IMG/VR virus record: IMGVR_UViG_3300024320_000499
Span: 1-20,806 of that record
Source of the DNA: a virus
DNA length: 20,806 nucleotides
Strand: one strand, 5' to 3'
The position numbers were made by a program, and so were the translations under genes. Positions 635 to 16,683 of this stretch are shown here, one piece after another. The notes under the pieces are model-generated. The model searched no databases. It saw only the letters and a list, made by a program, of their open reading frames with translations, and had not been told where the DNA came from. The number at the start of each line of letters is the position of its first letter. The stretch's first letter is position 1.

Positions 635-1954
635 TTATGATTGGCTATAGTATGCATGTTCACCGAAAGGTGGAACAATTTGGTCAGTACCGTGAATGAC
701 AAATAAACTATCACAATAACTTTCATCGCCCCAGGAATCCCAAGGCATACCATCTGTAAACATAATAAACTTATCAGGAGTAATATCGTTTTCCTTCATA
801 AAGTTATAGTTACAATCGAAGTCAGTACCACCACCGCCGACAATCTCATATTCTTTTAGTTCATCAGCATTGTATGGGTCAAACTCTTTATAACCTTCTT
901 TGTTTACTTCGGTATCAAATGTCCAAATTCTAATCTTAAAATCTTGAAACTGTTGCATAATTCCGTGAACTTCACCAAGAAATTCTTCAATCATTGAAGA
1001 TGAAATAGAACCTGAAACATCAAGGGCAATTGCAACATCAATCTTATCTTCGTTCTTCGAACCAGGAAGATAAACTCCCATTGATTGTGATTTACGAGAT
1101 TGTCTCATAAATGTGAAATCACTTTTCAAAAGACTTTGAATTGAAATGTTAAGAAGTTCTCTCCAATCCATTTTAGGATTAGTCATACCACTTATAATTC
1201 TTTTGATATCACCAGGAAGAGTTCCTGCATCAGTTGATTGAGCCGCTTGTAATACTGCCTGTTTCATCTGGTCTTTGATTGCTTGGGCTTCTTGAGGTGA
1301 AACTTTAATAGGTGATTTTCTTCCAGTTGGGTCGTCTTTGCCGTCACCTTCACCTTTTCCATCACCATCACCAAACATGTGTTGGTCTAATGTTTGTTTA
1401 TCATCGCCCTCACCAGTTTCTTTTAGGTGTTCATAAATTTCTTCTGTATAACTTCTGTAATATTTTCTATCATGTAATGCTTGTTTCGGCATAACACCAA
1501 CATTTGATTCCACTAATGCTTGGTTAACTTTATAGTCAGCCGCAATATTCCAAAGTTTCATATCTCGGTCTTCTTCTTTTTTGTCCATCAATCTACCAAA
1601 CTCACCACAATGTTCATAAACACAATGCATAACTTCGTGACCAACAACAAAATCAATTTCTTCTGGAGTTAAAGTTCTAAAAAAATCTGAATTATAATAT
1701 AAATGTCTGCCGTCAGTTGCGGCAGTAGGACACCATTCTGCCTCGACCATTTTAAGTCTAGTAGCAAGTGTGCCAAAAAATGGATGTCTTATAAGAAGTC
1801 TAACTCGACTACTTACAATCATCTCTTTAACTTGTTCGTCAGTATAATCAAATACTACTGGAGCAGGAAGAGTATCATCTATCTCAACACCGTTAGCCGC
1901 CAAAACATCATCTAATGCTTTGTCTAATTCTTGTTCATTTGTAACTGTTGACAT
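635..1954 (-). CDS. VWA-like / putative metallopeptidase protein (DUF2201 type)
   Basis: The 439-aa protein has two recognisable parts. Residues about 40-180 hold a zincin-like signature, HEVMH at 106-110 followed by His115, as in the putative metallopeptidase domain of DUF2201 proteins. Residues about 305-439 are a von Willebrand A-like domain with the MIDAS motif DVSGS (312-316), the threonine motif GGGGTD (373-378) and FTDG with Asp401. A Gly/Asp/Lys low-complexity linker (about 195-210) precedes a helical middle part. Proteins of this architecture are usually encoded beside MoxR-type AAA+ ATPases and are thought to act with them in remodelling or maturing target proteins. Such an ATPase is encoded at 8044-9174, about 6 kb upstream in transcription order. 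Proteolytic activity is unproven. Confidence 0.85.
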   Translation of the reverse strand: MSTVTNEQELDKALDDVLAANGVEIDDTLPAPVVFDYTDEQVKEMIVSSRVRLLIRHPFFGTLATRLKMVEAEWCPTAATDGRHLYYNSDFFRTLTPEEIDFVVGHEVMHCVYEHCGEFGRLMDKKEEDRDMKLWNIAADYKVNQALVESNVGVMPKQALHDRKYYRSYTEEIYEHLKETGEGDDKQTLDQHMFGDGDGKGEGDGKDDPTGRKSPIKVSPQEAQAIKDQMKQAVLQAAQSTDAGTLPGDIKRIISGMTNPKMDWRELLNISIQSLLKSDFTFMRQSRKSQSMGVYLPGSKNEDKIDVAIALDVSGSISSSMIEEFLGEVHGIMQQFQDFKIRIWTFDTEVNKEGYKEFDPYNADELKEYEIVGGGGTDFDCNYNFMKENDITPDKFIMFTDGMPWDSWGDESYCDSLFVIHGTDQIVPPFGEHAYYSQS

Positions 1955-3063: not shown

Positions 3064-3091
3064 ATTATAACACGAAAGTCACTCCTGTCAA
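3064..3091 (-). promoter_or_regulatory. Sigma70-like promoter of the gene at 2234-3034
   Basis: TTGACA at 3091-3086, 16-base spacer ending in GTGT and TATAAT at 3069-3064. The TGA stop codon of the ketosynthase gene (3090-3088) lies inside the -35 box, marking the end of the biosynthetic cassette. Confidence 0.87.
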
Positions 3092-4239
3092 GTTTTTGTC
3101 AGAAAAATACTTGCGTTTGCACCACCAAATCCAAAACTATTACATAGAACTGAATCTACCATATAATTCTTGGTGGTTGGAGTATACTTTATATTGTAGC
3201 CATCTTCTAAGTAATCTATATTCAATGAGGGTGTTATTACCCCATGTTTTAGTGATAATACACTTAAAGCCAACTCCATAGACCCGGCAGCACCCATGAG
3301 ATGCCCAATTTGCGACTTATTAGCAGTTACCCATACATCTTGTAGTCCGAGACGATTAAGTGCGTCTATTTCAATATAATCGCCCATAGGAGTAGATGTT
3401 GCATGGGCATTGATTAAGTCTGGAATACGCCCATTCAATGCATCTTTCATGCATTTCTCTATCATAACCCCCTCTGGATGCGGTGCCACGACTTGATAAG
3501 CATCATTGTTCATGGAGTAACCAGATATCTCTGCTAACGTCTCTGGTGTCTTCTTATTAGACAATAAGAACAATGCTCCCCCCTCACTAAGTACTAATCC
3601 ATCACGTTTTGTATCCCAAGGGCGAGATGCCTTTTCTGGAGTATTGTTGTATTTTGTAGATAATGCTCTAAGTTTTCCGAACTGTTTATAGGAATCAGGT
3701 GATACAGAATCATCAAAAGACCCTGCAATTATGTTATCTGCTTGACCAGTTTCTATTAACATACATCCCATAATAACACTATACATTCCTGTAGAACAAG
3801 CACTAGAAGTCATAGTACTCGGACCAGTAAATCCATATTGAATGTTGATATTATTAGATATCATGTTTGGTGTAAAAGTGAAAGTATTATCTGTATCTTT
3901 CTCATTAGCCCTTATAGTTTCAAGGTACATACTTAGTGCTGATGAAACTATTACACCAGTTCTTTCTTTGTCTAACTCTTTGCCCTCTAATAGTTCCTGT
4001 GCTGATGCTAATGCCCATTGCATATATTGTGGCATCTTTTCGCGGTCTCTTTCAGATATGCTATCATACTCTTCGGCATTGAATTTCACTTCGCCTGCAA
4101 CTTTAGACCTAGTATATCTATCCCACGGAAATTTACTTAGTTCGCCATAACAGACTTTGTTATCTGTTATGCCTTTCCATGTTTGGTCTAAATTACCAAA
4201 AGGAGTTAATCCACTGATTGCGTTAATGTATACGGTCAT
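3088..4239 (-). CDS. 3-ketoacyl-ACP synthase (KAS II/FabF-like condensing enzyme)
   Basis: The 383-aa protein is a full thiolase-fold condensing enzyme. The nucleophile is Cys148 in SSACSTGM, followed by His279 in NAHATSTPMGD, then Lys308 and His313 in NKSQIGHLMGAAGS, giving the complete Cys-His-His centre of FabF and polyketide synthase KS domains. RPWDTKRDGLVLSEGG (206-221) and the terminal NSFGFGGANAS (367-377) are also diagnostic. Length is slightly below E. coli FabF (about 410 aa). Such enzymes accept an acyl group on the cysteine and condense it with malonyl-ACP after decarboxylation. It is the last gene of a four-gene operon, joined to the GNAT-like gene by an ATGA overlap. Sequence alone cannot separate a fatty-acid from a specialised-product role; the neighbours favour the latter. 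Confidence 0.9.
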   Translation of the reverse strand: MTVYINAISGLTPFGNLDQTWKGITDNKVCYGELSKFPWDRYTRSKVAGEVKFNAEEYDSISERDREKMPQYMQWALASAQELLEGKELDKERTGVIVSSALSMYLETIRANEKDTDNTFTFTPNMISNNINIQYGFTGPSTMTSSACSTGMYSVIMGCMLIETGQADNIIAGSFDDSVSPDSYKQFGKLRALSTKYNNTPEKASRPWDTKRDGLVLSEGGALFLLSNKKTPETLAEISGYSMNNDAYQVVAPHPEGVMIEKCMKDALNGRIPDLINAHATSTPMGDYIEIDALNRLGLQDVWVTANKSQIGHLMGAAGSMELALSVLSLKHGVITPSLNIDYLEDGYNIKYTPTTKNYMVDSVLCNSFGFGGANASIFLTKT

Positions 4240-4847
4240 TTTTTAAATTTAATCTTTTCAAGTGATACAAAATCTCTAACATTTACTCGGAAGATATCTT
4301 GCTTTGTATTATAAACAGATGCATCTTTATGAATTAATGTCATCCATCCAGTCTTGCCATTTTCTCTACGATTGCGTCCATGTGAATGTACTTTATTCAT
4401 TGTTTCGCCTTCTGTGACATCTGAATTGGTAGTTGCGATAATTTCAGTTGCTCCTTTTGATACTGCCCAGTCAACTTGTGCTGGCATAATTGCTCTAAAG
4501 CAAAAGTTGTGTTGCATTTTTCTAAGAGATATCTTTGCACTTGCCATTCCACGATATGCTTTCAATGTAGCCATTCTATACATTATTCGATAACAATCTT
4601 TGTGAAAATGCGGATAGTAATGCGAGCCACTCATAGCAATAATTTTATCACCATGATATACAACATGCCATTGTTCAAGTTCACCCCATTTGCCAAACTT
4701 CATTGCTTTTAGGCTGGAGTTGTTTTCGATACCTTCTGTTTCACAGGCTTCACAAAATGCTAGAACATCATTCAGAATACTAGGAGTATATTCAACTAAC
4801 TTGAATTCTAAATTGTCAGCACCTATCCATGTTTCTAAAACATTCAT
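4236..4847 (-). CDS. Putative GNAT-like N-acyltransferase
   Basis: The 203-aa protein has the approximate layout of a GNAT fold: an N-terminal helix pair (to about 50), strands around HVVYHGDKIIAMSGSHYY (61-78), a strand and turn RIMYRMATLKAYRGMAS (87-103) where acetyl-CoA would bind, then a helix and VDWAVSKGATEIIATTN (125-141). The canonical (Q/R)xxGx(G/A) pyrophosphate loop is not clean, so the assignment rests on overall pattern and size. It overlaps the halogenase gene before it and the ketosynthase gene after it by four bases each, so it is translationally coupled to both. In that setting it might acylate an amine or hand over an acyl group, which is inference. A wholly unrelated fold is possible. 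Confidence 0.5.
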   Translation of the reverse strand: MNVLETWIGADNLEFKLVEYTPSILNDVLAFCEACETEGIENNSSLKAMKFGKWGELEQWHVVYHGDKIIAMSGSHYYPHFHKDCYRIMYRMATLKAYRGMASAKISLRKMQHNFCFRAIMPAQVDWAVSKGATEIIATTNSDVTEGETMNKVHSHGRNRRENGKTGWMTLIHKDASVYNTKQDIFRVNVRDFVSLEKIKFKK

Positions 4848-6541
4848 TTTGCCTTTTTGGCTTTTGCATATTTTTTGAGATTCTCCTGAAGAACTTCATC
4901 ATGTGACTTATCACCAAAGAGTACTTTCTTATGCCACTCATAGGCATTAGGTGCATTCACACCATTTCGTTTTGCTGATGTTCGAAGCCAAGAGAACTTT
5001 TCATTTGCTTGTTCCATTAGTTCTGGTTTTGTATTCAATTTAATATCATCATCAAACTTACCCATAGCAACCGCCATCATCGCCCACATAAAATCTGGAA
5101 CTCCTGATTCAGCATTGTTGCCAGGAACTCTATATTCTCTCCAACATGCTTCTTTATGTTTCATGTCAATACCAAGTTGTTTCTTTTTCTTCCAGAATGG
5201 AGTATCCTCTCTTTCTGATAATGTATAATGAAATAAAATAAATCGTTTAATAGTTTCAACCAACCAATCTATATTCTTGTTGTATGCATGGAGTGACCCT
5301 CTGCCAATAACTTCATCATTTTCTTCTGCACGAGCAATTAATGAACTACACAATTGAAATCCTGCTTGAGCAATGCCAAGAATATTTGCTTCCATCGGTT
5401 CAATCATAGAACCTGACATACCAATTGACACGACATTTTTATTCCATTGAGTTTTATATTTGCCTGCTTCCCAGGACATGTGTTGTGGCTCTTGGATAAA
5501 TTCGTAACCTTCCCAATACTTTTTATATTTCTTTATTGCATCTTCAACAGATATCTCACTACTATCAAATATATAACCAGACCCCATTCTATTATATAAT
5601 GGTATAACAAATAACCAACCCTCATCCATTGCGTTACTCATAGTGTACGGACGGAATTCTTGGTGTACATTTTTATATTTTATTGGTGCAACAACTATAT
5701 CTGTGGCTGTTATCTCTGGCATCGGTATCCATTCTACATCCATTGTTTTTGTTAGTACTCTATAGAATCCAGTACAATCAAGGAATAAATCACCTGTAAT
5801 TTCTTCACCTTCTTCGGTAACAATTGAGGTAATATAACCATCATCATCTTTATTAATATCTGTAACATGACCATGTAAGTGAGTAACACCGTGAGGTATT
5901 GCAACCTTGTCTCTGATTATTTCTGGAAATCTATTTGCATCTACGTGGTATGTAACACCTTGCCATGTACCAACTAATAAATTATCATCCCAATCATACG
6001 GCGCCTTATTGTAATCCATAAGATATGTTGCCTCTTGCATATCTTGTGCCATTTCCCAATGGTTCTTGCGACCATCACGTAATAACTGTAACCAGTAATC
6101 ATTCCATTTATCATCAACTCCAGGTTGTCCTTTAGAGTTTCTGAATAAGTCTTTCTTTTCTAATGGATGATATAGACCTGATGTAATATTCTTTTCAGGT
6201 AGGGCGTAAGAGAAACCATAATATTGTTCGTCCCATCGTGAACACCAAAAATGATTAGTTGCGTGGTCACGTTTGCCTTCGATATTCCAACCAACAAATT
6301 TATTACCTAGTTTGTAAACAGAATTTGTATGAGTCATCCAATCTCTTTCTTCTAATCCAATCTCTTTCATCATTGTACCTAGTTGAGGCAATGTACTTTC
6401 ACCTACACCAATAGGTGGAATTTTATCACTTTCAATGATAGTTACTTTGATATTAGGATGTTTGACTGCCATCCAGGCCGCTGAGAACCAACCACCAACT
6501 CCACCGCCTACAACAACGATACTTTTTATTTTAGATTTCAT
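4844..6541 (-). CDS. Flavin-dependent halogenase (tryptophan halogenase family)
   Basis: The 565-aa protein has the FAD-binding GGGVGG (12-17), the family-typical VGESTLPQLG (46-55), the motif VYKLGNKF with Lys77 in the position of the catalytic lysine (Lys79 of PrnA), and LDCTGFYR (254-261). GWLFVIP (308-314) is a variant of the GWxWxIP motif with Phe for the second Trp. IEPMEANI (380-387) holds Glu384, matching the catalytic glutamate of PrnA (Glu346), with Ala in place of the neighbouring Ser. These enzymes use FADH2, oxygen and halide to make HOCl, HOBr or HOI, which passes to the lysine and halogenates an electron-rich substrate. A viral member, VirX1 of cyanophage Syn10, is known. It overlaps the ligase gene by 11 bases and the GNAT-like gene by 4. 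Halide and substrate cannot be read from sequence. Confidence 0.92.
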   Translation of the reverse strand: MKSKIKSIVVVGGGVGGWFSAAWMAVKHPNIKVTIIESDKIPPIGVGESTLPQLGTMMKEIGLEERDWMTHTNSVYKLGNKFVGWNIEGKRDHATNHFWCSRWDEQYYGFSYALPEKNITSGLYHPLEKKDLFRNSKGQPGVDDKWNDYWLQLLRDGRKNHWEMAQDMQEATYLMDYNKAPYDWDDNLLVGTWQGVTYHVDANRFPEIIRDKVAIPHGVTHLHGHVTDINKDDDGYITSIVTEEGEEITGDLFLDCTGFYRVLTKTMDVEWIPMPEITATDIVVAPIKYKNVHQEFRPYTMSNAMDEGWLFVIPLYNRMGSGYIFDSSEISVEDAIKKYKKYWEGYEFIQEPQHMSWEAGKYKTQWNKNVVSIGMSGSMIEPMEANILGIAQAGFQLCSSLIARAEENDEVIGRGSLHAYNKNIDWLVETIKRFILFHYTLSEREDTPFWKKKKQLGIDMKHKEACWREYRVPGNNAESGVPDFMWAMMAVAMGKFDDDIKLNTKPELMEQANEKFSWLRTSAKRNGVNAPNAYEWHKKVLFGDKSHDEVLQENLKKYAKAKKAK

Positions 6542-7919
6542 TTAATTCCCCTTTTCGTAAAATGTCTTTTACGATATGTCGTTTAATTTTGCCCATCGCA
6601 TTTCTTGGCAAGCCTTCTGTCACAATTATGACATCTTTAGGTAGTTCGTAGTGCATTAACTTTTTCTTTATGTGTTCTGTTATCTTGTATTTATTCAATT
6701 CAGTATCATCACTTCTTATCACGGCAACTAGTTCCTTCTCTCCTAGACCTCGTTCTCTGTAGGTAACACATACTTCATCTACTCCCTCATATGTAAGGAT
6801 GGCGTTCTCCACTGCTACAGGAGACACATTAAAACTGTTCACCTTAATCAAGTCTTTCGCTCGTGTCTTAAATGCTAACTCGTTATGTTTCCGCTCAAAT
6901 ATATCACCAGTACACCAATATCCCTCAGCATCAATAATCGTTGCTTCACTGTTCAAGTATCGTTTTGTTATTGTTGGTCCTTTCAACCACAATACACCAA
7001 ATCTATCTAACTTATGCTCATAAAATTCTGATACTTCCAGTTGCAATTTGTGTTCAGTATCGGGTTCAATAAGATACGTGAGTGCAGGTACGTGTGTTTC
7101 TGTACATCCATAAAGATGTCTGACAAGTGGGACTCCCTTATCAAATAATATATCTATCACTTCATTAGTGATTGCAGTACTGCCAATACTCAACTGTCGG
7201 TAATGAGACATACTATAATCTTTCCATTTACGAACTTTTTGCAAAGCAAGTAACATTGCTGGTACCATTGTACCGATAGTAGGCTTCCATTTGTTACATA
7301 ATTCTATATGTCGTCTAGGTTCAAACTGTTCAATAATTATAGTAGCACCTTTTATTAATCCTGGTAGAGTATACAAGTACATACCAGCAATCGTTGATGG
7401 TGGAAGTTGAGATAATATTACATCATTAGATGTTAACTTGTGTATTGAAATACTATGTAGACATCCTAGCATACATCCAGCGGCTGAATGAACGACCGCA
7501 GATGGACTACCATTCGTGCCACTCGTAAATAAAATAGTATAGGTAGCATTGTCTTCCTTGACATATACTAGACCTTTATTATGTGGTTTTAGTTCTAAGG
7601 CATCTTGCTCACTCATTATAACATGGTCAGGTTTACAAGCATCGACAATATCAAATAAGTAATCTTCTGGTAAATTAGGATGAGTTGGAATAAATGTAAC
7701 ACCTAGGATATCACAAGCAAGTATCATTCTCACATAGTGATATTCTTTTTCACTTGCAAACAGTATTTTTTCACCAGGTTTTATAGCAGTTGATAAGACG
7801 GCAGCCAGTGTCTCTACACTCTCTATGAGTTCAGAATAGGTATATTGCTTATCTTTACAAATAAGTGCGGTTTTTGACCCGTGGTCACGAGCGGAATGCT
7901 TTATAGTTTCAAATATCAT
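6531..7919 (-). CDS. Acyl/aryl-AMP ligase (ANL adenylate-forming enzyme)
   Basis: Counted from ATG at 7919 the protein has 462 residues and both ANL subdomains: FTSGTNGSPS (131-140, A3 phosphate loop), HLYGCTET (268-275, A5), YWCTGD (334-339, A7), RAKDLIKVNSFNVSP (353-367, A8 hinge) and PRNAMGKIKR (438-447, A10) with catalytic Lys444. The lysine normally ending the A3 loop is Ser. The enzyme should activate a carboxylate as acyl-AMP and pass it to CoA, a carrier thiol or an amine. A longer frame from TTG at 7961 would translate the terminator and promoter and has no sensible ribosome-binding site. ATG at 7919 lies six bases after a TACAAT -10 box, so the mRNA is probably leaderless. It opens the halogenase-GNAT-ketosynthase operon. 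Confidence 0.88.
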   Translation of the reverse strand: MIFETIKHSARDHGSKTALICKDKQYTYSELIESVETLAAVLSTAIKPGEKILFASEKEYHYVRMILACDILGVTFIPTHPNLPEDYLFDIVDACKPDHVIMSEQDALELKPHNKGLVYVKEDNATYTILFTSGTNGSPSAVVHSAAGCMLGCLHSISIHKLTSNDVILSQLPPSTIAGMYLYTLPGLIKGATIIIEQFEPRRHIELCNKWKPTIGTMVPAMLLALQKVRKWKDYSMSHYRQLSIGSTAITNEVIDILFDKGVPLVRHLYGCTETHVPALTYLIEPDTEHKLQLEVSEFYEHKLDRFGVLWLKGPTITKRYLNSEATIIDAEGYWCTGDIFERKHNELAFKTRAKDLIKVNSFNVSPVAVENAILTYEGVDEVCVTYRERGLGEKELVAVIRSDDTELNKYKITEHIKKKLMHYELPKDVIIVTEGLPRNAMGKIKRHIVKDILRKGELNEI

Positions 7920-7954
7920 AATACTATTGTACCATAAAAAAAGAGGGAAGTCAA
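7920..7954 (-). promoter_or_regulatory. Sigma70-like promoter of the ligase-halogenase operon
   Basis: TTGACT lies at 7954-7949, a 17-base spacer follows, and TACAAT lies at 7931-7926, preceded by TG at the extended -10 position (TGGTACAAT). The start codon of the ligase gene is six bases beyond the -10 box, so the expected transcription start falls on or next to the A of ATG. The -35 box lies inside the loop of the terminator hairpin at 7936-7969. Confidence 0.75.
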
Positions 7955-7969
7955 TAGACAACCCTCTTT
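7936..7969 (-). terminator. Intrinsic terminator upstream of the biosynthetic operon
   Basis: Reading the minus strand, AAGAGGG at 7968-7962 pairs with CCCTCTT at 7947-7941, with one more A-T pair possible, across a 14-base loop. The 3' arm runs into a run of T (7942-7936). It lies after the MoxR-type ATPase gene and would stop transcription coming from that block. Confidence 0.75.
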
Positions 7970-8043
7970 CATCTTCTAGGTTATGTAGTCTAGGATTACC
8001 TGATACCCTACGTATCCCGGCAGCCCCCTAGTGGGCTATTCTT
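7970..8043 (-). other. Structured intergenic segment, possible leader or attenuator RNA
   Basis: On the minus strand, AGCCC (8037-8033) pairs with GGGCT (8026-8022) around a six-base loop ACTAGG. GATAC (8016-8012) pairs with GTATC (8006-8002) around GTAGG. The loop sequence CTAGG can pair with either of two downstream CCTAG copies (7994-7990 or 7980-7976). The terminator follows directly. The segment is more GC-rich than its surroundings and has no tRNA T-loop. It may be only the 3' part of a terminator region or a regulatory RNA; the sequence cannot decide. Confidence 0.35.
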
Positions 8044-9174
8044 TTAGGCGTTATGTGCCTCGATAATTAACTTACCATGTTTTTTGAAGAACTTCTCAAT
8101 ACAAGGTACTTTTCTAGGTTCTAGAGGTAACTTGTAAACTTTAAGAGCAGTTCTGCCACCTAATACTGTCATTTCAGTATCAAAGTTTTCCATCATAAAG
8201 TTGAAGAAGTTATCAGCCATTTTGTATAACTCATCCATTTTATCTTTACCATTTCTATCTACAAAGTCTTTCAACTCATAACATAGTGAAGTAGTCAATG
8301 AAAACATTGCTGAAATTTCTTTTGCCTCAGCAGAAAGTGATGTAACTGTACCGTCTAGGATATCAGAAGGAACAGGTAACTTCCCAGAAATGGCTCTGTG
8401 AGCCATAAACTTAGTAGCAACTCCGTCACCAACTGTACCAGCAATCAAGTCGTGTAGTCTACTATCACTAATTTCTTCGCCTTCTTTCGGTAACATTTCT
8501 GAAACAAAAGTCCAACTTCTTGGAGTAGCAAAGGCTCTTGAAGCCGTTCTAGGGTCAAAGTTAAATAAATCCATCTTGTTAGATGTTAAGAAACCTACAA
8601 CATCAGAATGAATTTTATTCTCTAATGCCCAAGTCTGCCAATCTTCAAAGTCAACACCCATTTCTAAGTGAACAAATCTGTTAGCAAGTGGTGAAGGCAT
8701 CCTATAAGCAACACCTCTATCACTCTCTCTATTACCAGCCGCAACGATTAAAACATTGTCTGGTAAAACATAAGAACCCAATCGTCTATTCAGAATTAAC
8801 TGATAAGCCGCGGCTTGAACTGATTGTGGTGCTTGGTTCATTTCATCAAGGAATAAGATAACTGACTCGTATTGGTCTGCTAATTCTTGACTAGGTAAAT
8901 CCGAAGGGGTAGCCCATTCCATTGTACCATTTTTATCATTGAAATATGGAATACCTCTTAAGTCAGTTGGTTCCATCAGAGCAAGTCTAAGGTCAATCAT
9001 AAAACCTGACCTTTCTTGTGTAATACTATCTACAATTTCTGATTTACCAACACCAGGAGGACCCCAAATGAATACAGGTCGTTTTCTATTAAATGCATAA
9101 TTAAGTTCAGCCCTAATATCACTAGGTCTGACAACTCTTACATCTAAATCGTTTGTTGATACTTTATTTTTCAT
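8044..9174 (-). CDS. MoxR-type AAA+ ATPase
   Basis: The 376-aa protein carries Walker A GPPGVGKS (38-45), Walker B VILFLDE (105-111), sensor 1 VAAGNRES (144-151) and the ATPRSW region further on, all typical of MoxR/RavA-like AAA+ ATPases. The family forms hexamers and works with VWA-domain partners to remodel or insert cofactors into proteins. The likely partner is the VWA/metallopeptidase-like protein at 635-1954. The gene has its own promoter (9204-9231) and an AGAGAGGT ribosome-binding site next to the ATG. Cyanophage CobS-like proteins are another phage MoxR-like group; this one lacks any reason to link it to cobalamin. Which host or virion protein is the target is not visible. Confidence 0.85.
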   Translation of the reverse strand: MKNKVSTNDLDVRVVRPSDIRAELNYAFNRKRPVFIWGPPGVGKSEIVDSITQERSGFMIDLRLALMEPTDLRGIPYFNDKNGTMEWATPSDLPSQELADQYESVILFLDEMNQAPQSVQAAAYQLILNRRLGSYVLPDNVLIVAAGNRESDRGVAYRMPSPLANRFVHLEMGVDFEDWQTWALENKIHSDVVGFLTSNKMDLFNFDPRTASRAFATPRSWTFVSEMLPKEGEEISDSRLHDLIAGTVGDGVATKFMAHRAISGKLPVPSDILDGTVTSLSAEAKEISAMFSLTTSLCYELKDFVDRNGKDKMDELYKMADNFFNFMMENFDTEMTVLGGRTALKVYKLPLEPRKVPCIEKFFKKHGKLIIEAHNA

Positions 9175-14345: not shown

Positions 14346-14607
14346 TTGTTTCCCTTTCATATTCAGTGAAGTCGTAGTCTTTATCTCTCCAGACTTCGTT
14401 ATCTTCTTCATCTAAAATTTTAATCCATTCAATGTCAAAGTCGCCTAGCCCAACTGGTGTTTCATTTTCTGGTTCATGGTCGACTGCATTCTCACCCAAA
14501 TCGTCCATTAAATCATCTAAACTTTCAGCAGTGTTTCCTTCACGTACAAAGAATTTCTTTTCAGCATCGTAGTAGTTAACTTCCCATAGAACTGTGAAGT
14601 TTACCAT
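14335..14607 (-). CDS. Small acidic hypothetical protein
   Basis: From ATG at 14607 the product has 90 residues, beginning MVNFTVLWEVNYYDAEKKFF. A GGGAG ribosome-binding site lies eight bases upstream within the end of metK; another in-frame ATG at 14622 has no such site. The protein is very acidic with an early beta-rich segment resembling a short strand-turn-strand (WEVNYYDAEKKFFVREG) and an Asp/Glu-rich rest. The start overlaps the last codons of metK, so the genes are coupled. I do not recognise a function. Confidence 0.65.
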   Translation of the reverse strand: MVNFTVLWEVNYYDAEKKFFVREGNTAESLDDLMDDLGENAVDHEPENETPVGLGDFDIEWIKILDEEDNEVWRDKDYDFTEYERETNEQ

Positions 14608-15689
14608 CCTATTTTCTCCCATGGAACATCTTTATTACCAAAGTGTCCATATGTACAGTTTTCACTATACTTATAAAAATCAAATAAACCAAATCTATCA
14701 ATGATTCCTTTTGGTGTTAGGTCAATGTTTTCTTCGATATACTTTTGGATAGTTCTATTGTGTCCATTACTATCTACATAGATACTCGTTGGCTCTTTAA
14801 CACCGATAGCATAACTCAATTGAATTTGACACCAATCTGCCATGTTATCTGCTACAACATTCTTTGCTAACCATCGTGCCATGTAGGCGGCACTTCGGTC
14901 GACTTTTGTTGGGTCTTTTCCAGAAAAGGCACCACCACCATGGGGAGCATAGCCACCATAAGTATCAACGATAATCTTACGCCCGGTAAGTCCTGTGTCG
15001 CCATCAGGACCACCAATGACAAACTTGCCTGTAGGATTAATATGCCATGTAGTGTTTTCATCAATTAAATCTCCCATTACATTATTAACTGCTTCACCAA
15101 CTGTACTTTTAAGAAGTTGTTCAGAACCCTCGGTATGCTGTGTACTTACAACAATCTGGTCAGCACGTTTTACTTTACCACCTTCATATTGTAAACTTAC
15201 TTGTGATTTCGCATCTGGTAATAGAAATTTATAAGCAGTATTTCGTTTCTCTTTGAGGTCTTTAAGTATCTCGTGTGCGTAATATATAGGTGCTGGTAGC
15301 ATTGCATTGTTTTCATTAGTTGCATAACCAAACATTAATCCTTGGTCTCCAGCGCCGAAATCATCGGTTCCTAGTGCGATATCGCCTGATTGTGAATGTA
15401 TTTCATTATAGACTTTTAGTCTTTCCCAATGAAAGCCTTCTTGTTCATATCCAATTTCTTTAACTGTATAGCGGACAATTTCTTCTACATCGTCCTTACT
15501 AACATTAAAGTTCTTTACTTCACCCGCTAACGTTACGTGGTTAGTAGTTACAAGTGTTTCGACTGCAATCCTTGTAGTTTCATCACCATTTTTTAGTCCA
15601 GCATCTACCATTCTATCACTAATCTGGTCAGAAACTTTATCTGGATGACCGTCGCTTACACTCTCGCTTGTAAAAATATAGTTGTTCAT
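14601..15689 (-). CDS. metK: S-adenosylmethionine synthetase
   Basis: The 362-aa protein is a complete methionine adenosyltransferase, making SAM from ATP and methionine with release of phosphate and pyrophosphate. Visible signatures are ESVSDGHPDK (9-18) with the active-site His15, GAGDQG (112-117), the ATP-binding GGGAFSGKD (251-259) followed by DRSAAY, and the C-terminal WEKIGW. It is a little shorter than E. coli MetK (384 aa) with no missing domain. Cytoplasmic; usually a tetramer. It has its own promoter (15724-15752). It lies next to adenine phosphoribosyltransferase, which suggests a joint role in SAM supply and adenine recovery during infection. A phage copy could also feed methyltransferases, none of which are visible here. 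Confidence 0.95.
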   Translation of the reverse strand: MNNYIFTSESVSDGHPDKVSDQISDRMVDAGLKNGDETTRIAVETLVTTNHVTLAGEVKNFNVSKDDVEEIVRYTVKEIGYEQEGFHWERLKVYNEIHSQSGDIALGTDDFGAGDQGLMFGYATNENNAMLPAPIYYAHEILKDLKEKRNTAYKFLLPDAKSQVSLQYEGGKVKRADQIVVSTQHTEGSEQLLKSTVGEAVNNVMGDLIDENTTWHINPTGKFVIGGPDGDTGLTGRKIIVDTYGGYAPHGGGAFSGKDPTKVDRSAAYMARWLAKNVVADNMADWCQIQLSYAIGVKEPTSIYVDSNGHNRTIQKYIEENIDLTPKGIIDRFGLFDFYKYSENCTYGHFGNKDVPWEKIGW

Positions 15690-15763: not shown

Positions 15764-16132
15764 CTATTGTCTTTCCCAAGTATGCTCAGAAGTCAATTTA
15801 AAACTGCCAAAACATGGCATATTCCAACGCTCTGGTTCTATCATACTTAAAAACAGCCCATTATTACCTTTGTAAAGATGATATATTCTGCCTACTACAG
15901 GATTGATATTACATGTGGCATTATACACCATTTCAGTATCTTCTGTTAGTTTGGCTAATCTAAAGTATTCTTCTTTGAGTTCTTCAAATTTAGAAGTAAG
16001 TTGTGCCCGAGCATTTGCTCCTCGTTCTCTTTTCTTAGATAATACGGCAGGAACTGTAAATGCTGGTGCTCCTACATTTGTAGGATAAGGAGATAATCCA
16101 GGATTATCTGCTACTAAGTCTGGCTTCTTCAC
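15764..16132 (-). CDS. DUF2452-family protein
   Basis: The 122-aa protein has the features of DUF2452: an N-terminal NPGLSPYPTNVGAPAF (10-25), a charged central helix (LTSKFEELKEEYFRLAK), and the C-terminal block GRIYHLYKGNNGLFLSMIEP with a final SEHTWE. The family is found in bacteria and phages and has no assigned function. The gene overlaps apt by an ATGA, so the two are made together. Apart from this coupling nothing hints at the role. The assignment rests on the GxxYHLY...LSMIxPxxW...HTWE pattern as I remember it. Confidence 0.7.
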   Translation of the reverse strand: MKKPDLVADNPGLSPYPTNVGAPAFTVPAVLSKKRERGANARAQLTSKFEELKEEYFRLAKLTEDTEMVYNATCNINPVVGRIYHLYKGNNGLFLSMIEPERWNMPCFGSFKLTSEHTWERQ

Positions 16133-16683
16133 TTTTCTTGTAAGATAGAATATACGTCATAACCAGCATCACGTAATTTAGCACCGCCACCTAAAAACTC
16201 AAGTTCCATTATACTTAATATACATGAAACGTTTGCTTCACATCTTTCTATCAACTCAATGGCAGCCTCAAGTGTTCCGCCTGTTGCTATAACATCATCA
16301 ATAATCAGAACTTTATCATCTTTTTGTATTGCATCTATTTGTAAATGCAATTCATCAGTTCCATATTCTAATTCATATTCAGTAAAGATTGTTTCTCCTG
16401 GTAGTTTACCTTTCTTTCTAGCCATTGAGAATGGTATACCAGTTTGAGAACTCAAAGCACCTGCCATTGGAAATCCACGAGCATCTAAACCAACTATTTT
16501 ATCAAATTCTACTTTACCTTTTGCTAAAAGATAATCATCAAACAATGACATTACATTCTTTAAGCCTTTAGGTGCATTAAAGATACTTGCCATATCCTGA
16601 TAGAGTACTCCAGGCCTAGGATGGTCTGGAATAACTCTAATCAAGTTTTGAATAGTTTTTGGGGTTGGTTTTATAATAGTCAC
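16129..16683 (-). CDS. apt: Adenine phosphoribosyltransferase
   Basis: The 184-aa product matches the length of bacterial Apt. It has IPDHPRPGVLYQD (18-30), GLDARGFPMAGA (65-76), the substrate segment ARKKGKLPGETIF (88-100) with ELEYGTD (104-110), and the PRPP-binding loop VLIIDDVIATGGT (125-137) with the usual two acidic residues. The enzyme joins adenine and PRPP to make AMP, recovering adenine freed from host nucleic acids or from breakdown products of SAM. It shares an operon with the DUF2452 gene and lies upstream of metK. Some related transferases use other purines; the APT-specific KLPG and LEYG segments favour adenine. Confidence 0.9.
   Translation of the reverse strand: MTIIKPTPKTIQNLIRVIPDHPRPGVLYQDMASIFNAPKGLKNVMSLFDDYLLAKGKVEFDKIVGLDARGFPMAGALSSQTGIPFSMARKKGKLPGETIFTEYELEYGTDELHLQIDAIQKDDKVLIIDDVIATGGTLEAAIELIERCEANVSCILSIMELEFLGGGAKLRDAGYDVYSILQEK

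What the first reader, a model, noticed from the sequence alone, without database searches (positions are those of the whole stretch)
3088..7969. Phage-borne four-gene halogenating biosynthetic cassette
A complete adenylate-forming ligase, a flavin-dependent halogenase, a GNAT-like protein and a ketosynthase with intact Cys-His-His centre form one operon with overlaps of 11, 4 and 4 bases, in the middle of T4-like replication and unknown phage genes. It has its own promoter, a terminator before it and the promoter of the next gene at its end. Single viral halogenases are known, but I know of no described phage operon that joins carboxylate activation, chain extension, acyl transfer and halogenation. 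The inferred product is a halogenated acyl or polyketide-like small molecule made during infection, perhaps a toxin, signal or defence compound; the product class is speculation.
Basis: partly seen in the sequence, partly recalled or inferred. Interest (0 to 1): 0.92.

Follow-up and report, generated by a model that had tools for sequence, protein, structure and literature searches.

The report
Jumbo-phage acyl biosynthesis cassette with halogenase-like enzyme
A family of large ocean viruses of bacteria carries a small assembly line of enzymes, with its own acyl carrier and carrier-activating enzyme elsewhere in the genome, that looks built to make an unknown, possibly halogenated, fatty small molecule during infection.

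Summary
Four genes (acyl ligase, Trp-halogenase-like flavoenzyme, GNAT-fold protein, FabF-like ketosynthase) form one operon at 3088-7919, overlapping by 11, 4 and 4 bases, behind a promoter that recurs in 13 of 13 other cassette loci read. The order recurs in 31 other marine viral contigs (25 complete between the same two flanking genes, 6 cut by contig ends), so it is neither chimera nor chance. All four genes are under purifying selection; the three recognisable enzymes keep their catalytic residues.

(2) 10 of 12 large cassette records encode an acyl carrier protein, and two a holo-ACP synthase, far from the cassette. (3) Three records without the intact cassette lack the carrier gene at its conserved place; one also lacks the synthase gene at its place. 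That cassette-less lineage is nested among carriers, which suggests loss as a unit. I read it as a carrier-protein-dependent acyl pathway, probably released by N-acyl transfer.

Halogenation is likely, not shown: the second Trp of WxWxIP is Phe in all 15 sequences aligned. Product, substrate, host and role are unknown. New variant of a known kind (phage biosynthetic clusters).

The parts
7939..7970 (-). Rho-independent-terminator-like hairpin after the upstream MoxR ATPase gene; overlaps the -35 box of the cassette promoter
   Evidence: RNA fold -18.2 kcal/mol, z -4.85; inverted repeat with T run by eye in 11 of 15 related loci
7926..7954 (-). Cassette promoter TTGACT-17-TACAAT, 6 bases before the ATG (near-leaderless mRNA)
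   Evidence: -35 and -10 recur before the ligase in 15 of 15 related loci compared
6531..7919 (-). LIG: adenylate-forming acyl ligase, 462 aa, A10 lysine K444
4844..6541 (-). HAL: PF04820 flavoenzyme, 565 aa; GGGVGG, K77, E381-P-M-E384; WxFxIP instead of WxWxIP
4236..4847 (-). GNAT-fold protein, 203 aa, candidate releasing N-acyltransferase; close family found only in viral contigs in the scans made
3088..4239 (-). KS: FabF-like ketosynthase, 383 aa, C148-H279-K308-H313
3064..3091 (-). Perfect sigma-70-like promoter of the next gene, overlapping the KS stop
8044..9174 (-). Flank: MoxR-type AAA ATPase, fixed upstream neighbour of the insertion site
635..1954 (-). Flank: VWA / DUF2201 protein, marks the downstream side of the insertion site

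Best explanation
The cassette is the core of a phage-encoded, carrier-protein-dependent acyl pathway. Proposed order: a phage holo-ACP synthase arms a phage acyl carrier protein (both encoded far from the cassette in relatives); LIG adenylates a carboxylic acid and loads it on the carrier; KS extends it by two carbons with malonyl-ACP from the host; HAL, fed reduced flavin by the host, halogenates (or oxygenates) the acyl chain, plausibly at the activated carbon of a beta-ketoacyl-ACP or on an aromatic group; in many relatives one or two membrane desaturases add unsaturation; the GNAT-fold protein releases the chain by transfer to an amine. Shown: gene content, order, conservation, catalytic residues of LIG, HAL and KS, the GNAT fold as a model, and joint presence and absence of cassette and carrier protein. 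Inferred: substrate, order of steps, halogenation, that this carrier serves these enzymes, and the N-acyl product.
For: Same order in 31 other contigs, 25 complete to the VWA gene; of 30 contigs found by the GNAT profile alone, 30 carry LIG and HAL, and 29 of 29 that reach far enough carry KS. Catalytic residues invariant. dN/dS 0.10-0.23 for all four genes between the window and L025, L045 and L035. Desaturases inside or at the end of the operon in 17 of 31 contigs, which points to a fatty-acyl substrate. Carrier protein PF00550 in 10 of 12 large cassette records; in a second search 7 of 7 (records already in the first) with against 0 of 6 without the intact cassette. At the HscB-IscA locus the carrier gene is present in the six cassette records read there (loci L097, L113/L216, L114, L116, L117, L215) and missing in G013, G017 and G018, whose flanking genes are there. 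Holo-ACP synthase (G003 protein: TIGR00516 94.2 bits, cut-off 59.8) in one gene neighbourhood in G001, G003 and three more contigs (L200, L203, L204); absent from that neighbourhood in cassette-less G013. No ketosynthase anywhere in 6 of 6 records without the intact cassette. Cassette-less lineage nested among carriers, 97% support for its sister group. A ligase and a HAL relative in the same order, with a GNAT-position gene after them, recur without KS in a distant phage (L079), whose HAL is sister to this family, 100%.
Against: No biochemistry. WxWxIP is altered in all members. No flavin reductase (PF01613, 0 of 13) or SDR ketoreductase (PF13561, 0 of 13) was found, so host enzymes are needed or the keto group stays. 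The ACP sits beside Fe-S genes (HscB, IscA), where it could serve Fe-S assembly instead. The joint absences rest on few lineages; G017 and G018 share a similar replacement cassette, so they may be one event. AcpS absence at a well covered locus is one record (G013), and it was found in only 2 of 13 records, most being fragments. L201 has an AcpS at another place, and the three extra AcpS contigs are not known to carry the cassette. Shortened ligase copies in phages without HAL and KS still show dN/dS 0.19-0.25, at nearly saturated dS, so the ligase may have a use of its own. GNAT membership is fold only. The GNAT-position protein of L079 has no profile match.
Confidence: 0.62

Rival explanations
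1. Host membrane or envelope remodelling: the genes alter fatty acids or surface glycolipids of the infected cell (fluidity, receptor masking, superinfection exclusion), and no free small molecule is made.
For: FabF-like KS; desaturases in relatives, weakly DesA-like (63.2 and 53.5 bits, cut-off 400); ACP; three roseobacter prophages carry acpP, fabF and fabG (PMC8224337, passages); cyanophage lipid desaturases are known (title in that paper's reference list).
Against: I know of no lipid route that needs a Trp-halogenase-type flavoenzyme (recalled), yet 30 of 30 contigs found by the GNAT profile carry one; no SDR ketoreductase was seen (0 of 13); KS is below the FabF equivalog cut-off (272.8 against 493.75).
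Confidence: 0.2
2. The GNAT transfers the acyl group to a host or phage macromolecule (protein amine, tRNA or DNA amine), as a host-takeover or anti-defence mark.
For: Fold matches are protein and small-molecule acetyltransferases; the two best VIA rows are the GNAT domain of a protein acetyltransferase. Phages often modify host machinery (recalled).
Against: Fold similarity says nothing about substrate; a dedicated chain-extension, desaturation and halogenase-like route is much chemistry for a protein mark.
Confidence: 0.12
3. HAL is not a halogenase but a flavin monooxygenase or epoxidase, and the product carries no halogen.
For: Second Trp of WxWxIP is Phe in 15 of 15 members, Pro is Ser or Thr in 8 of 15, while all 8 cyanophage and pelagiphage sequences aligned keep WxW; the motif is suggested to prevent monooxygenation (PMC8407142, passages).
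Against: Catalytic Lys (K77) and EPME kept in all; the 30 solved matches at E up to 1e-10 are halogenase-family entries by name, LooH and VirX1 included; the motif or variants of it are known to be absent in some halogenases (PMC8407142).
Confidence: 0.3
4. Chance assembly or chimera of bacterial DNA in a phage contig.
For: Bacterial-type enzymes in a phage window.
Against: 31 further contigs with the same phage flank or flanks, uniform base composition; two scans of bacterial genomes found no relative of the GNAT or HAL.
Confidence: 0.01

Closest known systems
Chloramphenicol dichloroacetyl genes CmlK (AMP ligase), CmlM (putative ACP), CmlS (flavin halogenase), Streptomyces venezuelae (PMC4249514, passages read)
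   Same: AMP ligase, ACP and flavin halogenase proposed to make the halogenated acyl group of an amide
   Different: Bacterial; no KS or desaturase in that set as listed there; the CmlS model matches HAL only weakly (6.5e-7, residues 7-66); the paper itself calls the roles of these genes obscure
VirX1, flavin halogenase of cyanophage Syn10 (PDB 6qgm; review PMC8407142, passages; the primary paper is not held)
   Same: Viral PF04820 enzyme with catalytic Lys; matched by the HAL profile at 1.7e-70
   Different: Both Syn10 halogenase genes keep WxWx(I/V)P and lie in another clade; in the 9.3 kb read around them the LIG, GNAT and KS profiles found nothing
Roseobacter prophage acpP-fabF-fabG clusters (PMC8224337, passages)
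   Same: Phage-borne ACP and FabF
   Different: Ordinary fatty-acid operon order in prophages; no ligase, halogenase or GNAT mentioned in the passages seen
Phage-encoded biosynthetic gene clusters of Dragos et al. 2021 (known only through review PMC10452541, passages)
   Same: Natural-product genes on phages
   Different: Mostly bacteriocins in temperate phages; the same review found no cluster in 153 cyanophages by antiSMASH
Jamaicamide starter genes JamA-JamB-JamC with halogenase JamD (recalled, not read)
   Same: Acyl ligase, desaturase/acetylenase, ACP and flavin halogenase
   Different: Bacterial PKS-NRPS setting; the window itself has no desaturase

Membership tests
Flavin-dependent (tryptophan-type) halogenases, PF04820 | Profile match | tested here: met
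   284 bits, cut-off 21
Flavin-dependent (tryptophan-type) halogenases, PF04820 | GxGxxG and catalytic lysine (K79 in PrnA) | tested here: met
   K77 in 15 of 15 members and 10 of 10 other phage sequences aligned
Flavin-dependent (tryptophan-type) halogenases, PF04820 | WxWxIP | tested here: not met
   WxFxI(P/S/T) in 15 of 15; the motif or its variants are absent in some known members
Flavin-dependent (tryptophan-type) halogenases, PF04820 | Fx.Px.Sx.G tunnel motif | tested here: inconclusive
   F110 and P115 invariant, Ser at 121 or 122, but the spacing rule was not available
Flavin-dependent (tryptophan-type) halogenases, PF04820 | Halogenating activity | not testable with these tools
   Needs enzyme assay
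Condensing ketosynthases (FabF/FabB superfamily) | Both KS domains, Cys-His-His and Lys | tested here: met
   PF00109 and PF02801; C148, H279, K308, H313 in 14 of 14
FabF equivalog | TIGR03150 cut-off | tested here: not met
   272.8 bits against 493.75
ANL adenylate-forming ligases | Both domains and A10 lysine | tested here: met
   PF00501, PF13193 over cut-off; K444 in 15 of 15
GNAT superfamily | Fold | tested here: met
   VIA Z 12.0, rmsd 3.3, 149 aligned; model pLDDT 80.9
GNAT superfamily | Sequence profile match | tested here: not met
   No Pfam, PHROG, NCBIfam match
Carrier-protein-dependent (thiotemplate) pathway | Carrier protein and phosphopantetheinyl transferase in the same genome | tested here: met
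   In relatives G001 and G003; the 20.8-kb window record itself is too short to tell
Carrier-protein-dependent (thiotemplate) pathway | Enzymes act on the carrier-bound acyl group | not testable with these tools
   Needs reconstitution
Jamaicamide-type ligase-desaturase-ACP set | Desaturase in the cluster | tested here: not met
   No such ORF among the four cassette genes of the window; present in 17 of 31 relatives
Temperate-phage bacteriocin clusters | Temperate phage | not tested
   No integrase search was made

The most novel reading that the evidence does not exclude
Marine jumbo phages carry a nearly self-sufficient assembly line (own carrier protein, own carrier-activating enzyme, ligase, ketosynthase, desaturases, a private clade of halogenase-like enzymes and a phage-only acyltransferase) that makes a halogenated N-acyl metabolite during lytic infection, and gain or lose it as one unit from three places in the genome.
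Probability: 0.38. Interest if true: 0.92.

Novelty: new variant of a known kind. Interest (0 to 1): 0.82.

Why it matters
Phages are known to carry single metabolic genes and, mostly in temperate phages, bacteriocin clusters. A dedicated acyl pathway with its own carrier and activating enzyme would mean that large phages can divert host precursors into a product of their own, possibly an organohalogen, in the open ocean. It also makes the question of what viral halogenases are for testable, because here partner enzymes, and therefore a substrate class, are given.

Tried and rejected
Chimera or chance: rejected. Bacterial relatives of the GNAT and HAL families: pattern-based scans of the bacterial and archaeal genome collection matched 72 and 80 stretches, none confirmed by tblastn; this is limited by the pattern step and is no proof of absence. 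KS and ligase hits in the annotated phage collection (29 and 28 records) are mostly records without annotation and did not help; the GNAT had no hit there. The AlphaFold model of HAL was poor (pLDDT 52) and was not used. Flavin reductase and SDR ketoreductase: none in 13 records. Reading the short ligase copies (L124, L128, L136) as decaying remnants: by eye they have lost the ATP-binding A3 motif and the C-terminal part, but dN/dS is 0.19-0.25, so I do not call them pseudogenes. Toxin, signal or defence role: nothing found for it; no defence-library search was made. Literature: nine searches of the open-access library, of which I saw capped listings, showed no phage operon of this kind; most subscription papers are not held, so this is no proof that it is unpublished.
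Full report
What is there. The window is a 20.8-kb virus record, by its DNA polymerase a T4-like jumbo phage: closest are the 469-kb Sinorhizobium phage Phosso and the 490-kb Agrobacterium phage Atu_ph07, at 47-49% identity. On the - strand four genes follow each other with overlaps of 11, 4 and 4 bases: ligase LIG (6531-7919), halogenase-like HAL (4844-6541), GNAT-like (4236-4847) and ketosynthase KS (3088-4239). Base composition does not change across them. Pfam supports three of the four. The GNAT-like protein has no match in Pfam, PHROGs or NCBIfam and no meaningful one in PDB sequences; its model (14 sequences, pLDDT 80.9) is a GNAT fold.

Regulation. In front of LIG a hairpin with a T run (z -4.85) overlaps a promoter TTGACT-17-TACAAT whose -10 box ends six bases before the ATG, so the mRNA may be leaderless. 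In 75 bases upstream of LIG of 15 related loci (13 with the cassette, and L124 and L128 with only a short LIG) the -35 box and a TATAAT-like -10 are there in 15 of 15, at the same close spacing in 14; in L035 they lie about 28 bases further up. The inverted repeat is seen by eye in 11 of 15. The next gene has its own perfect promoter over the KS stop.

Conservation. Scans of viral contigs with GNAT, KS and HAL and with alignments of GNAT and HAL gave 31 contigs with the cassette besides the window. Order: ATPase-LIG-HAL-GNAT-KS-VWA complete in 11; the same with desaturases A and B in 9; with desaturase C in 4; with desaturase D after KS in 1; 6 more are cut by the contig end and agree as far as they go (2 plain, 2 with A and B, 1 with A, 1 cut inside HAL). 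Desaturases are thus seen in 17 of 31. These contigs were chosen by HAL; as a check, the GNAT profile alone found 30, of which 30 have LIG and HAL and 29 of 29 that reach far enough have KS. Many contigs are near-copies (24 HAL loci gave 16 distinct proteins), so the 31 are not independent. Of four desaturases tested, three match PF00487, two of them over its cut-off; A has no match and D is below the cut-off. The A-C sequences carry HxxxxH and two HxxHH boxes by eye.

Intact enzymes. KS C148, H279, K308, H313 (14 of 14); LIG TSGT, GCTET, TGD and K444 (15 of 15); HAL glycine-rich FAD motif, K77, EPME (15 of 15). Their catalytic roles are recalled from the families. dN/dS between the window and L025, L045 and L035 is 0.10-0.23 for all four genes; against more distant L029 and L041, with dS over 1.1, it is 0.15-0.37.

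The halogenase question. HAL matches the halogenase family strongly and its best solved relatives are Thal and PrnA, but the second Trp of WxWxIP is Phe in 15 of 15 and the Pro is Ser or Thr in 8 of 15, while 8 of 8 cyanophage and pelagiphage sequences keep WxW. Two further phage sequences, L079 and G015, also have Phe. With L079 this family forms a clade of its own (100%), apart from the cyanophage enzymes. A review says that the motif or its variants are absent in a number of flavin halogenases (PMC8407142, passages). So halogenation is likely but open.

A carrier protein and its activating enzyme. PF00550 was found in 10 of 12 large cassette records; the two without are 72- and 60-kb fragments, and I did not check whether they cover the locus. 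In a second set, 7 of 7 records with the intact cassette (all in the first set too) have it and 0 of 6 without; none of those six has a ketosynthase either. One ACP type lies directly after an IscA gene, next to an HscB-like gene. At that locus the ACP is present in G001, G003, G006, G007, G010 and contig 3300027801_001463, all with the intact cassette, and absent in G013, G017 and G018, which have HscB, IscA and the following gene. G013 has no cassette: between ATPase and VWA lie about 800 bases with one 210-aa ORF that looks GNAT-like by eye but does not match the GNAT profile. G017 and G018 have a short LIG, a divergent GNAT and a mini-ligase instead. G014 does not cover the ACP locus and says nothing. 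A second ACP type lies elsewhere: beside a radical SAM gene in G005 and at 245 kb in G001, and at 115 kb in G001. A holo-ACP synthase was found in G001 and G003 (2 of 13; the other intact-cassette records searched are 76- to 139-kb fragments and may miss it); the G003 protein is over the curated cut-off. The same gene neighbourhood with the synthase is in three further contigs, L200, L203 and L204; a fourth, L201, has a synthase next to a radical SAM gene instead. L200 and L203 come, to judge by their names, from the same metagenomes as two cassette contigs; whether these phages carry the cassette is not known. G013 has the flanking genes but not the synthase. G014 and G015 gave no match to the family, but G014 lacks most of that locus and G015 has it only in part.

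History. A two-gene tree of the flanking ATPase and VWA (26 loci) puts the cassette-less G013 group inside the cassette carriers, sister to L037/L039/L042 (97%). So cassette, ACP and AcpS were probably lost together there, from three places that in G001 lie near 34, 82-89 and 316 kb. G017 (L128) and G018 (L124) fall in two further places, but they share a similar replacement, so recombination could make this one event. Eight more distant contigs (L138-L142, L144-L146) have ATPase and VWA about 200 bases apart; in L137 other sequence of 3.8 kb lies between, without the cassette. Several nodes are weak (41-65%).

How it most likely works. See Best explanation. The absence of an SDR ketoreductase in 13 records fits a kept beta-keto group, whose neighbouring carbon is a good target for electrophilic halogenation (recalled chemistry), but host FabG or another reductase cannot be excluded. 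The nearest worked analogue is the CmlK-CmlM-CmlS set of chloramphenicol (PMC4249514, passages). In L079, found in four near-identical contigs, a ligase and a HAL relative are followed by a gene in the GNAT position, without KS; that gene has no profile match, so its kinship rests on position and a few shared residues.

Known or new. Single viral halogenases, phage ACPs, prophage acpP-fabF-fabG sets and temperate-phage bacteriocin clusters are known. I saw no description of this combination in nine searches of an open-access library (capped listings). I file it as a new variant of phage-encoded biosynthetic clusters, with an unusual degree of self-sufficiency.

Host. Not established. A permuted tmRNA with tag ANDNYQPEMAMAA in G001 and the rhizobial phage relatives hint at an alphaproteobacterial host; that such tmRNAs are typical of that group is recalled. 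That the contigs are marine is inferred from sample numbers and from the marine phages nearest to HAL, not from a record shown to me.

Noticed in passing
L115:5062-11411 (G005), and G001 near 112-115 kb and 244-248 kb: A second carrier-protein neighbourhood: in G005 ACP next to a radical SAM protein, with a NodU-type carbamoyltransferase and (by eye) an SGNH-like gene near; in G001 split over two places, one with a desaturase-like gene.
   Followed up: partly
L124:7371-8863, L128:7046-8532, L098:3809-5042: Divergent GNAT paired with a 227-236 aa mini-ligase that lacks the C-terminal domain, at the cassette site in two phages and at another site in G001.
   Followed up: partly
L079:8883-12014: Compact 352-aa ligase, 498-aa HAL relative and a 195-aa gene in the GNAT position, in overlapping order, without KS.
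   Followed up: partly
L207:4007-6876, and L206-L213 by matches: In another phage group a 104-aa AcpS-like gene sits between a glycosyltransferase-like and a radical-SAM-like gene (by eye).
   Followed up: no
G001:32209-34097 and 47198-47578: HscB-like, two IscA-like and an IscU-like gene (the last by eye) in a phage genome: phage-borne Fe-S assembly (the G003 HscB and IscA relatives by profile).
   Followed up: no
L147, L149, L152: In S-RIM44, HTVC008M and Sf-CH11 the halogenases lie near structural, neck or terminase genes, in the last two next to dioxygenase genes, which suggests a different role, perhaps on virion proteins.
   Followed up: no
window 635-1954: PHROG 1314, matched by this protein, is named HNH endonuclease, but Pfam shows metallopeptidase and VWA-like domains; a separate HNH-like gene lies nearby in relatives (by eye).
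   Followed up: no
window 14601-15689 and 16129-16683: Methionine adenosyltransferase (435 bits, cut-off 309) and adenine phosphoribosyltransferase (179 bits, cut-off 125) genes.
   Followed up: no
L110:1184-1530: Permuted tmRNA gene in the 342-kb relative G001.
   Followed up: no
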